Assembly (NCBI GenBank): GCA_035622275.1
Contig: DASPVQ010000024.1
Coordinates: forward strand, 1-64,000
DNA: 64,000 bases
DNA from: Thermoplasmata archaeon
Lineage (GTDB): Archaea > Thermoplasmatota > Thermoplasmata > Lutacidiplasmatales > UBA184
Direction of reading: 5' to 3'
The translations under genes and the position numbers were made by a program. The notes below the pieces were generated by a model that saw nothing but the letters and a program-made list of their open reading frames with translations, searched no databases and had not been told where the DNA came from. Each line of letters starts with the position of its first letter. The stretch's first letter is position 1. Below are positions 24,435 to 26,877 of this stretch, one piece after another.

Positions 24435-25748
24435 TCAGTGGCCCCGAACGCGACGTCGCGCCGTGCGGTGGCGGGGAGCGGCCCCTCGCGGAGTGGCCGG
24501 CGACACCGGGTCCAGGTTCGCGAGATCCCGTCCGACCTCGTCGAGCAGGAGGCCGGCAAACTCGATCTTCGGCCCGCGGATCCAGTGGGGGACCGTGCCC
24601 CGCCCGATCACGAGCGCCTCGGTGCTCGTGCTCCCCATCGAGGCGATGTCGTTCGCCACGACCCAGTCGACCCCGGACTCCGCCCGCAACGCCTCGCCCT
24701 CCTCCTCGAGCCGGCGGGCGGCCTCCCCCGCGAGCAGCTTGAAGCCGACCAGCCGGGTCGGGGGCGGGGCCCACCGGCGCAGTTCGGTGAGAACCTTGGG
24801 CGCTCGCGTGAGCGTGAGGGCCAGCTGCGGCTGGCCCCGGGAGGCGATCTTGCCGGAGCGGGGCTCGAGAGTGAAGTCGGAGAGCGCTGCCGGCACGAAG
24901 ATCGCCGCGGCCGAGGCGAGGGCCGAACGGTGCTCGCGCGCGAGCGCGACGAGATCCCCGACGCTTCTCCACGAGCGCCGGGCCAGGTATGGCGGGACCG
25001 GCACCTGCATCGCGCCGGCCCAGAGCTCGACCTCGGCGCCGCGGAAGTGTGCCTGGGTCGCGAGGGCGACCGCCGTCGTTCCCGAACTCTCGTTGGTGAT
25101 CGACCGGACGGCGTCCAGCGGCTCGCGCGACGCTCCACCGATCACGACCACCGATCGGCCGGTCCACGGACCCCGGCCCAGCCGGTGCAGCACCGCGGCC
25201 GCGACCTCCTCGGGGCTCGCGATCTTCTCCTCTCCCTCGGCGCTCGCGCCCGGGATGATCCCGACGCCCCAGCGGCGGAGCTTGTCGAGGCTCTCGGCGA
25301 CCGCCGGGTTCTGCGCCATGTGCGCGTGCATCGCCGGGGCGATCAGGATCGGCACCCCGCCGCCGAGCGCCACCGACGCGCACGAGGTCACCGGGGTGTC
25401 GTCAATGCCGTGCGCGACCTTGCTGATCGTGTTCGCGGTGGCCGGGGCGATCAGGTAGAGGCTGACCCGGTCCTCCCCGGGCCCGAGCAGGGTCACGTGC
25501 TCGACATTGCCGGTCAGCTGCGTGACCGCCGGGTGGCCCGTGGCGAACTCGAGCGCCTCGGGAGTCACGATGCGGGTCGCCTCGGCGCTCATGACCGCGT
25601 TCACGTCGGCGCCGTGGCGGATCAGCTCCCGAACGATCTTCGGGACCTCGACCGCGGCGATCGAGCCCGACACGCCGACGAGGACCCGGCGCCCCTCGAG
25701 AAGGCGCGTTGTCCGGCCACGGATGACCCGACTCGGATGCACCGCCAT
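24435..25748 (-). CDS. coaBC: Bifunctional phosphopantothenoylcysteine decarboxylase / phosphopantothenate-cysteine ligase
   Basis: 437 residues performing two consecutive steps of coenzyme A synthesis. The N-terminal flavin-dependent decarboxylase (CoaC, about 20-200) shows GVSGSIAAVEVPKIVREL, LIAPATANTISKVAHGIDD and PAMHAHM (the PXMNXXMW-type motif, here with His at the Asn position). The C-terminal ligase (CoaB, about 205-400) shows VVVIGGASREPLDAVRSITN and a VGFKLLAGE segment, with VVANDIASMGS as in the family. The final 30 residues are a basic, low-complexity tail. ATG at 25748. Confidence 0.93.
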   Translation of the reverse strand: MAVHPSRVIRGRTTRLLEGRRVLVGVSGSIAAVEVPKIVRELIRHGADVNAVMSAEATRIVTPEALEFATGHPAVTQLTGNVEHVTLLGPGEDRVSLYLIAPATANTISKVAHGIDDTPVTSCASVALGGGVPILIAPAMHAHMAQNPAVAESLDKLRRWGVGIIPGASAEGEEKIASPEEVAAAVLHRLGRGPWTGRSVVVIGGASREPLDAVRSITNESSGTTAVALATQAHFRGAEVELWAGAMQVPVPPYLARRSWRSVGDLVALAREHRSALASAAAIFVPAALSDFTLEPRSGKIASRGQPQLALTLTRAPKVLTELRRWAPPPTRLVGFKLLAGEAARRLEEEGEALRAESGVDWVVANDIASMGSTSTEALVIGRGTVPHWIRGPKIEFAGLLLDEVGRDLANLDPVSPATPRGAAPRHRTARRRVRGH

Positions 25749-25812
25749 CGCCCCCGGTAGGACCCCCGCGAGGATGCCCGCCCGTAAAAGAGCGCCCCGG
25801 GGCGCCGCGGTC

Positions 25813-25820
25813 CTTTATCT
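25813..25820 (+). promoter_or_regulatory. TATA box of the HAD hydrolase gene
   Basis: ctttatct lies 23-30 nt before the ATG at 25843; leaderless transcription predicted. The region 25749-25842 carries divergent promoters for coaBC and this gene. Confidence 0.6.
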
Positions 25821-25842
25821 CCCCGCGGACTTCGAGCGCCGC

Positions 25843-26727
25843 ATGGGCGAGCACCGGCCGTCCGGGGAGGACCCGCCCTCGGCGCCACCCGACCTCCCGT
25901 TGCTCGAGGGGCTCGAGCTACCCGTTCTCACCGCGACGAGCCAGTTCGCGGAAGTGGGCCGCGGGGTCGGTCGACCCAGGGCACCGGTGGCGCCGCGGGC
26001 CGTGCGTCGAGGGGTGGTCGTGTTCGATCTCGATGGCACGATCCTCGATGACCTGCACCGGATCAGCGAGGTAGCGGCCGACGTGATGCGGACCGCCTTC
26101 GGCACCCCGCGGGACGAGGCGCGGGTGCACTACCTCGCGACGACCGGGATGCCGTTCGAGGCCCAGCTGGCCCAGCTCTACCCGTCGGCCCCGGCGGCGC
26201 TGCGCGCCGCCACCGCGCGCACGTTCCACCAGCGCAAGGTCGCCGAGGCGTACGCGAAGGCGAAACCATTCGGCGAGGTCTCGAAGCTGTTGAAGCGCCT
26301 CGATGCCGAGAGTTGGACGCTCGCGATCTCCACGGGTGCCGAGACCGAGATGGCGGAGCTCTTGCTCGAACGGGAGGGCCTGCGCTACTGGTTCGACGAG
26401 GTACTCGGCTCGGCCGACGGCACCAAGCGCGAGCACCTGACCGAATATCGTCGTCGCTACCCCGGCGTCCCGATCTTCCTCGTCGGCGATTCGCGCTTCG
26501 ACATGGAGGCCGCGGCGTCGACCGACGGGGTCATCGCGATGGGGCGGGCGTCGAAGCTGCCCGGTTGGACCCTCACGCCGCTCGACCTTCGCCGCTGGGG
26601 GGCGCGCTGGGCCGACTACTCGCTCTCCGCACTCCCTGCGGCGCTCGCACGGCTCGCGCGACCCCGCGCCCCGCGGACGCGGCGGGCATCGCCGACGCGC
26701 TCACGCGGGCCCCGACGGGCGCGTTAG
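25843..26727 (+). CDS. HAD-superfamily phosphatase
   Basis: 294 residues. All HAD motifs are visible: VVVFDLDGTILDD near 57-69 (nucleophile Asp), AISTGAETEM (motif II Ser/Thr), and VGDSRFDMEAA (motif IV acidic pair). The cap is helical and inserted between motifs I and II, as in phosphoglycolate-phosphatase-like enzymes. Substrate unknown. A 55-residue non-conserved N-terminus and a very basic C-terminal tail flank the domain. The stop is immediately followed by the 3' end of the tRNA-His gene on the other strand. Confidence 0.88.
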   Translation: MGEHRPSGEDPPSAPPDLPLLEGLELPVLTATSQFAEVGRGVGRPRAPVAPRAVRRGVVVFDLDGTILDDLHRISEVAADVMRTAFGTPRDEARVHYLATTGMPFEAQLAQLYPSAPAALRAATARTFHQRKVAEAYAKAKPFGEVSKLLKRLDAESWTLAISTGAETEMAELLLEREGLRYWFDEVLGSADGTKREHLTEYRRRYPGVPIFLVGDSRFDMEAAASTDGVIAMGRASKLPGWTLTPLDLRRWGARWADYSLSALPAALARLARPRAPRTRRASPTRSRGPRRAR

Positions 26728-26834
26728 GGCCGGGACCGAGACTCTCACGGCCCGGGGGTCGTCCCCGCGCCGCTTTGAACCCGGGTCGAGGGATCCACAG
26801 TCCCCCAGGATAGGCCAAGCTACCCCATCCCGGC
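26728..26834 (-). tRNA. tRNA-His (anticodon GTG) with a T-loop intron
   Basis: Minus-strand reading from 26834: acceptor GCCGGGA pairs 7/7 with TCCCGGC at 26735-26729. D-arm GGGTAGCTTGG...; anticodon stem GGGGA/TCCCT (one G-T) encloses the loop CTGTGGA with anticodon GTG at 26798-26796. T-stem CCGGG (26784-26780) pairs with CTCGG (26740-26736). The T-loop TTCAAA|T is interrupted between positions 59 and 60 by a 32-nt intron (26773-26742). An encoded G-1 at 26835 pairs with discriminator C73 at 26728, the identity hallmark of tRNA-His. CCA is not encoded. The mature molecule folds completely only after intron removal. Confidence 0.9.
26742..26773 (-). other. 32-nt intron in the T-loop (position 59/60) of tRNA-His
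   Basis: The boundaries form a canonical bulge-helix-bulge. The exon T-stem CCGGG/CTCGG is the outer helix. Four central pairs follow: TTCA (26779-26776) with TGAG (26747-26744), including one T-G. The two three-nucleotide bulges are AAG (26775-26773) and AGT (26743-26741). The inner intron helix is CGGC (26772-26769) with GCCG (26751-26748), and a GGGG/CCCC hairpin closes the intron. Cleavage two bases into each bulge restores the seven-base loop TTCAAAT. Confidence 0.88.
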
Positions 26835-26877
26835 CGCGACCGTTGGAGGTCGGAGCGGTACGAAAAGGTTTCCCCGC

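What the first reader, a model, noticed from the sequence alone, without database searches (positions are those of the whole stretch)
26728..26835. tRNA-His split by a T-loop intron at position 59/60 with a complete bulge-helix-bulge
Seen directly: a 7/7 acceptor stem, anticodon GTG, and G-1:C73 are separated by a 32-nt insertion exactly inside the T-loop. Removing it restores TTCAAAT between CCGGG and CTCGG. Both splice sites sit in three-base bulges (AAG, AGT) separated by four base pairs (TTCA/TGAG) with helices on both sides. Non-canonical T-loop introns are known mainly from Thermoproteales; most euryarchaeal tRNA introns are at 37/38. The strict two-helix motif should be cut even by a homodimeric euryarchaeal splicing endonuclease. 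Standard scans may report this locus as a pseudogene or miss it.
Basis: partly seen in the sequence, partly recalled or inferred. Interest (0 to 1): 0.85.

Follow-up and report, generated by a model that had tools for sequence, protein, structure and literature searches.

The report
Archaeal tRNA-His with T-loop intron
The only histidine tRNA gene found in this acid-soil archaeon is interrupted by a 32-base intron in an unusual place (the T-loop); at least twelve more of its tRNA genes are too, and its whole family shares the pattern, although its tRNA-splicing enzyme is of the type thought to accompany only few, ordinary introns.

Summary
Window 26835->26728 (minus strand) is a complete tRNA-His(GTG) gene split by a 32-nt intron at 59/60. 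It is the only tRNA-His found in the 1.73-Mb genome. ARAGORN and Rfam both miss it. The intron is real by comparison: nearly all well-assembled family members carry it, and in 81 distinct tRNA-His introns the bulge-helix-bulge pairs are kept while the sequence changes (inner helix 271/324 pairs; shuffled 190 +/- 6).

The gene is not alone. The same genome has 13 T-loop introns, 3 D-loop introns and 4 anticodon-loop introns among 43 tRNA genes. All 46 sampled genomes of its family (genus of UBA184, Lutacidiplasmatales, Thermoplasmata) have 5-14 T-loop introns; other families mostly have 0-1. The sole EndA is a two-domain alpha'-type protein without a visible Crenarchaea- or ARMAN-specific loop. 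The literature ties non-canonical introns to (alpha-beta)2 or epsilon2 enzymes and says euryarchaeal alpha4/alpha'2 species have few, canonical ones, so this lineage is a clear exception.

Caveats: no RNA data; only 7 of the 13 motifs have a fully paired central helix; simple folding prefers alternative loops for 10 of 13.

The parts
26728..26835 (-). tRNA-His(GTG) gene, intron included (G-1 at 26835, C73 at 26728; CCA not encoded)
   Evidence: only tRNA-His found
26774..26835 (-). 5' exon, G-1 to A59 (anticodon GTG at 26796-26798; T-stem 5' strand and TTCAAA at 26774-26784)
26742..26773 (-). 32-nt intron at position 59/60, a GC-rich hairpin
   Evidence: present at this place across the family
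26728..26741 (-). 3' exon, T60 to C73
   Evidence: 12/12 stem pairs restored on removing the intron
26776..26779 (-). central helix, exon strand T54-A57 (TTCA)
26744..26747 (-). central helix, intron strand TGAG (intron -6 to -3)
   Evidence: C56-G 81/81, T55-A/G 81/81, T54-G/A 80/81, A57-U 51/81 in relatives
26773..26775 (-). bulge 1, A58 A59 | G (inferred 5' splice site)
   Evidence: read from sequence
26741..26743 (-). bulge 2, A G | T60 (inferred 3' splice site); intron -2 is A in 80/81 relatives
26862..26872 (-). conserved upstream element GAAACCTTTTC, about -37 to -27 from G-1; likely archaeal BRE/TATA-type promoter
   Evidence: GAAACCTTT/GAAAGCCTTT-like element at the same distance upstream of tRNA-His in most family members

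Best explanation
This is the genome's functional tRNA-His gene, transcribed with a 32-nt bulge-helix-bulge intron in the T-loop. The T-stem forms the outer helix, TTCA of the T-loop pairs with TGAG at the end of the intron, and the intron hairpin is the inner helix. The homodimeric alpha'-type splicing endonuclease EndA would cut after the second base of each three-base bulge (after A59 and before T60); RtcB would join the exons and give mature tRNA-His. It is one of at least 13 T-loop introns in this genome, part of an expansion of non-canonical tRNA introns shared by the family (Lutacidiplasmatales). Shown here: gene anatomy, conservation, covariation, copy number, EndA type, presence of RtcB. 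Inferred: transcription, cleavage, ligation, and that the alpha'-type EndA alone does it.
For: 12/12 stem pairs restored by removal; no other tRNA-His found; full-length match in the family (all f1 genomes without any match are under 90% complete; one 98% complete genome, G080, shows only a paralogue hit) and no intronless tRNA-His seen in it; 81 distinct introns keep the BHB pairs with inner helix 271/324 versus 190 +/- 6 in shuffles and maximum 209; across different tRNAs of the genome G57 goes with C and A57 with U or G at intron -6, covariation score 0.619 versus 0.226 shuffled; conserved upstream element; one EndA with the Tyr/His/Lys triad and one RtcB.
Against: No RNA evidence. Single-strand folding prefers an alternative register by 4.3 kcal/mol for this gene and puts the BHB at the minimum in only 3 of 13 T-loop introns. 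Six of the other 12 motifs have A57.G next to bulge 1 and one (Asn) has a C.C mismatch, so the enzyme must tolerate one bad pair. The genome is a draft (97% complete), so a second tRNA-His cannot be fully excluded.
Confidence: 0.9

Rival explanations
1. The locus is a tRNA-His pseudogene disrupted by an insertion; an intact gene lies in the missing part of the assembly.
For: Draft genome, 97% complete.
Against: The insertion is at the same base in dozens of species, is always 29-33 nt, and keeps BHB pairing; both exons are intact; relatives of at least 90% completeness show no intronless copy.
Confidence: 0.03
2. The intron is real but is removed by an additional or altered endonuclease with broad specificity (an undetected beta subunit, or an alpha' enzyme whose specificity has widened without a recognised loop).
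For: 7 of 13 motifs in this genome have one mismatch in the central helix; 16 introns lie outside the anticodon loop.
Against: PF01974 matches only one ORF, twice, in this genome and one ORF in each of 32 class genomes; the catalytic half aligns without gap to M. jannaschii and A. fulgidus EndA through the place where the A. fulgidus variant with the crenarchaeal loop breaks. A degenerate beta subunit lacking a PF01974 match would be missed.
Confidence: 0.15
3. Split or permuted tRNA: the two parts are made as separate transcripts and joined in trans.
For: BHB motifs also serve trans-splicing in other archaea (PMC3218864).
Against: Both parts lie 32 nt apart in the right order on one strand, with a single conserved upstream element before the 5' exon only.
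Confidence: 0.01

Closest known systems
Non-canonical tRNA introns of Thermoproteales (Pyrobaculum and relatives)
   Same: BHB introns in T-loop and D-loop, many per genome, sometimes two in one tRNA (reviewed PMC4033280; tRNAscan-SE 2.0 paper PMC8450103, 0.84 introns per tRNA gene)
   Different: Different phylum; alpha'-type EndA rather than (alpha-beta)2 with the crenarchaeal loop; introns of different tRNAs in this genome show little similarity to each other (mean z 1.2), whereas in Thermoproteales similar introns sit in diverse tRNAs
Canonical 37/38 archaeal tRNA introns
   Same: Same BHB motif and presumably same EndA and RtcB; four such introns are in this genome (Tyr, Met, Leu-TAA, Trp); the same-order family f2 has a 37/38 intron in tRNA-His (L107, L108)
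   Different: Position 59/60, with the T-stem as outer helix
Homodimeric alpha'2 EndA of Archaeoglobus fulgidus and Thermoplasma
   Same: Single polypeptide with two EndA domains, catalytic Tyr/His/Lys in the C-terminal half
   Different: Those enzymes are listed as narrow-specificity (PMC6379350) and go with few canonical introns (PMC4090602); here the genome has 16 non-canonical introns
Korarchaeum alpha2-type EndA
   Same: Homodimeric type in a genome with non-canonical introns (PMC4033280)
   Different: That enzyme is reported to share the specific loop of (alpha-beta)2 enzymes; none is seen here

Membership tests
Archaeal BHB tRNA intron | Removal restores an intact tRNA | tested here: met
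   12/12 acceptor and T-stem pairs; G-1:C73 and GTG present
Archaeal BHB tRNA intron | 3-nt bulge / 4-bp helix / 3-nt bulge with flanking helices | tested here: met
   This gene fully paired; conserved with covariation in relatives, though 4th pair is A.G in 28/81
Archaeal BHB tRNA intron | Cut by EndA and ligated in vivo | not testable with these tools
   EndA and RtcB genes present; no RNA data
alpha'2-type EndA | One polypeptide with two tandem EndA domains, second one catalytic | tested here: met
   354-aa ORF with two PF01974 matches, the only ones in the genome
alpha'2-type EndA | No CSL/ASL-type insertion near the active site | tested here: met
   No insertion against 1a79 and 1r0v nor against 29 other class sequences; sequence level only, no structure
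epsilon2-type EndA (ARMAN) | Three-unit order with catalytic unit in the middle and ASL | tested here: not met
   Catalytic unit is the C-terminal half
Thermoproteales-type intron expansion by transposition | Similar intron sequences in different tRNAs of one genome | tested here: inconclusive
   Pairwise similarity is weak, best z 3.8 for Gln/Asp, partly due to the shared BHB ends
Split or permuted tRNA | Halves separate or in inverted order | tested here: not met
   Contiguous, normal order

The most novel reading that the evidence does not exclude
A euryarchaeal-type lineage has accumulated Thermoproteales-like numbers of T-loop and D-loop tRNA introns while keeping an ordinary loop-less alpha'2 splicing endonuclease. 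This would show that enzyme broadening (CSL/ASL, heteromeric subunits) is not needed for spread of introns to non-canonical positions, as long as the introns keep a near-canonical BHB.
Probability: 0.7. Interest if true: 0.7.

Novelty: new variant of a known kind. Interest (0 to 1): 0.62.

Why it matters
Reviews state that alpha4/alpha'2 euryarchaea have under 10% intron-containing tRNA genes, one intron each at the canonical position, and take subunit organisation of EndA as the determinant (PMC4090602, PMC4033280). Here about 19 of 43 tRNA genes have introns, 16 of 20 introns at non-canonical positions, next to a loop-less alpha'-type EndA. That makes the coevolution model testable with a single recombinant enzyme. 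Practically, ARAGORN and Rfam miss these genes, so tRNA-based completeness or codon-decoding inferences for this abundant acid-soil order may be wrong when made with such tools.

Tried and rejected
A first tRNA-His pattern had too short a gap and was uninformative; repeated correctly, where the other 12 hits are not tRNA-His genes. Identity of the genome with the type genome AcS3-62 (97% complete, 29 contigs) was considered and dropped: that genome is listed as 2.2 Mb, this one is 1.73 Mb. Intron transposition inside the genome was looked for by pairwise intron similarity; weak. An automatic search for BHBs in the D-loop and anticodon-loop introns used too strict an outer-helix rule and returned only spurious hits; the D-loop motifs were read by hand. 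Tree of EndA: f1 is one supported clade, and f16/f20/f23, which also have tRNA-His T-loop introns, form a weakly supported group elsewhere; one or two origins cannot be told apart.

Full report
What is there. On the minus strand, 26835 to 26728 reads as a tRNA-His gene with G-1, a GTG anticodon and C73, interrupted by 32 nt between A59 and T60. Removing these restores all 12 acceptor and T-stem pairs.

Is it the only tRNA-His? A covariance model of the tRNA 5' half (D arm, anticodon arm, TTCRA) found this locus and no other GTG tRNA (only the best 150 of 1940 candidates were scored). A pattern TGTGG-N11-20-GTTCRA found 13 places; only the window locus is tRNA-His. Four expected tRNAs (Glu-TTC, Pro-GGG, Pro-TGG, Leu-TAG) were not found, so the search or the assembly is not complete.

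Relatives. A search of 150 related genomes shows full-length, intron-spanning matches through the genus and family (f1), in f20 and f23; reading the loci adds f16. All f1 genomes without any match are under 90% complete; G080 (98%) has only a paralogue match. Family f2 of the same order has a 37/38 intron instead and no T-loop intron, and f8, f5, f11, f15 and others have a continuous T-loop in tRNA-His. UBA184 belongs to Ca. Lutacidiplasmatales, acid-soil archaea (PMC9287336); that paper's main text does not mention introns.

Covariation. In 81 distinct tRNA-His introns (29-33 nt) C56 faces G in 81, T55 faces A or G in 81, T54 faces G or A in 80, A57 faces U in 51 and G in 28. The first four inner pairs form in 271 of 324 cells against 190 +/- 6 in 2000 shuffles, maximum 209; intron base -2, the first base of bulge 2, is A in 80 of 81. 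On a mixed alignment of 20 T arms the structure has 94.4% of cells paired against 71.2% shuffled and a covariation score 0.619 against 0.226; slid registers drop to 23-66%. The shuffles ignore relatedness, so these are not probabilities, but the slid controls keep it.

The gene is one of many. Weak Rfam hits in the same genome, read out with flanks, are tRNA genes with T-loop introns at the same place: Ala-GGC, Ser-GCT, Ser-GGA, Ser-CGA, Gln-CTG, Gly-TCC, Arg-TCG, Asp-GTC, Lys-TTT, Arg-TCT, Asn-GTT, Glu-CTC, plus His: 13. Position 57 is G in six of these, each facing C in the intron; it is A in seven, facing U only in His and a purine mismatch in the other six; Asn has a C.C at the next pair. 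D-loop introns, read by hand, are in iMet, Arg-GCG and Lys-TTT, the last with two introns, with four-pair central helices CAGG/CCTG, GTAG/CTGC, TAGG/CCTA. Anticodon-loop introns are in Tyr, Met, Leu-TAA and Trp. That is 20 introns in 43 tRNA genes, 0.47 per gene; published averages are 0.21 for archaea and 0.84 for Thermoproteales (PMC8450103).

Distribution. A covariance model of the intron-bearing T arm gives 13 matches in this genome, 8-14 in the 29 sampled genomes of the genus and 5-14 in the 17 other sampled family members; 155 genomes of other families give mostly 0 or 1, with 2-6 in a few families (f25, f16, f23, f21, f27), and 109 of 201 genomes give none. The phylum-wide sample agrees. 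The model was trained largely on this family, so counts elsewhere are lower bounds.

The enzyme. PF01974 matches one ORF, twice, in this genome, and one ORF in each of 32 class genomes. The protein (354 aa from a GTG start) is most like two-domain EndA chains (5x89, 1r0v, 2gjw) with Tyr/His/Lys in the C-terminal half. The catalytic half aligns without gap to M. jannaschii and wild-type A. fulgidus EndA through the YG..LSL stretch, while the longer A. fulgidus chain 3p1y (315 against 305 residues; that it carries the inserted crenarchaeal loop is my own knowledge) aligns only downstream of it. So no crenarchaeal-type loop is visible; this is a sequence-level statement. RtcB is present.

Against the received picture. 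Reviews say that Euryarchaeota with alpha4 or alpha2 enzymes have under 10% intron-containing tRNAs, one each at the canonical position, and that subunit organisation determines the substrate range (PMC4090602; PMC4033280); alpha'2 enzymes are listed as narrow (PMC6379350) and lack the loop (PMC12397907). Seven literature searches found no report of such an expansion in Thermoplasmatota; the library is open-access only.

How it most likely works. Transcription starts downstream of the conserved GAAACCTTTTC-like element. The precursor forms the BHB with the T-stem as outer helix; EndA cuts in both bulges; RtcB ligates. Because the T-loop is split, splicing must come before T-loop/D-loop docking and T-loop modification (inference). 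The conserved TTCRA of the T-loop supplies one strand of the central helix in every tRNA, so a hairpin ending in about YGAR or GGAR would make a usable BHB in almost any tRNA. That may be why introns recur at 59/60 without a broad enzyme (inference).

Weak points. Folding energies do not favour the BHB in 10 of 13 cases (gaps 3.2-4.9 kcal/mol), so the case rests on conservation and covariation. No RNA data exist here. One relaxed pair in about half of the motifs means 'strict' should not be claimed for the set.

Noticed in passing
L043 (G000:C13:11300-11800): tRNA-Lys(TTT) carries two introns, one in the D-loop and one in the T-loop.
   Followed up: partly
L034 (G000:C17) and L036 (G000:C20): Initiator-type tRNA-Met and tRNA-Arg(GCG) have D-loop introns with four-pair central helices and three-base bulges.
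   Followed up: partly
L041 (G000:C27:94700-95200): tRNA-Trp has a long anticodon-loop intron with box C/D-like motifs, as in the known archaeal tRNA-Trp introns that nest a C/D RNA; not tested beyond the tRNA match.
   Followed up: no
L104 (G125), L141, L229, L167: tRNA-His T-loop introns also occur in other Thermoplasmata families (f16, f20, f23) and in a MAG labelled Methanomassiliicoccales E29_bin30, with unrelated intron sequence.
   Followed up: partly
window 25507-26727, + strand: An ORF with a HAD-type hydrolase look ends with its stop codon at 26725-26727, directly next to the 3' end of the tRNA gene (convergent).
   Followed up: no
G000 whole genome: tRNAs Glu-TTC, Pro-GGG, Pro-TGG and Leu-TAG were not found; they may have several introns or lie in assembly gaps.
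   Followed up: partly
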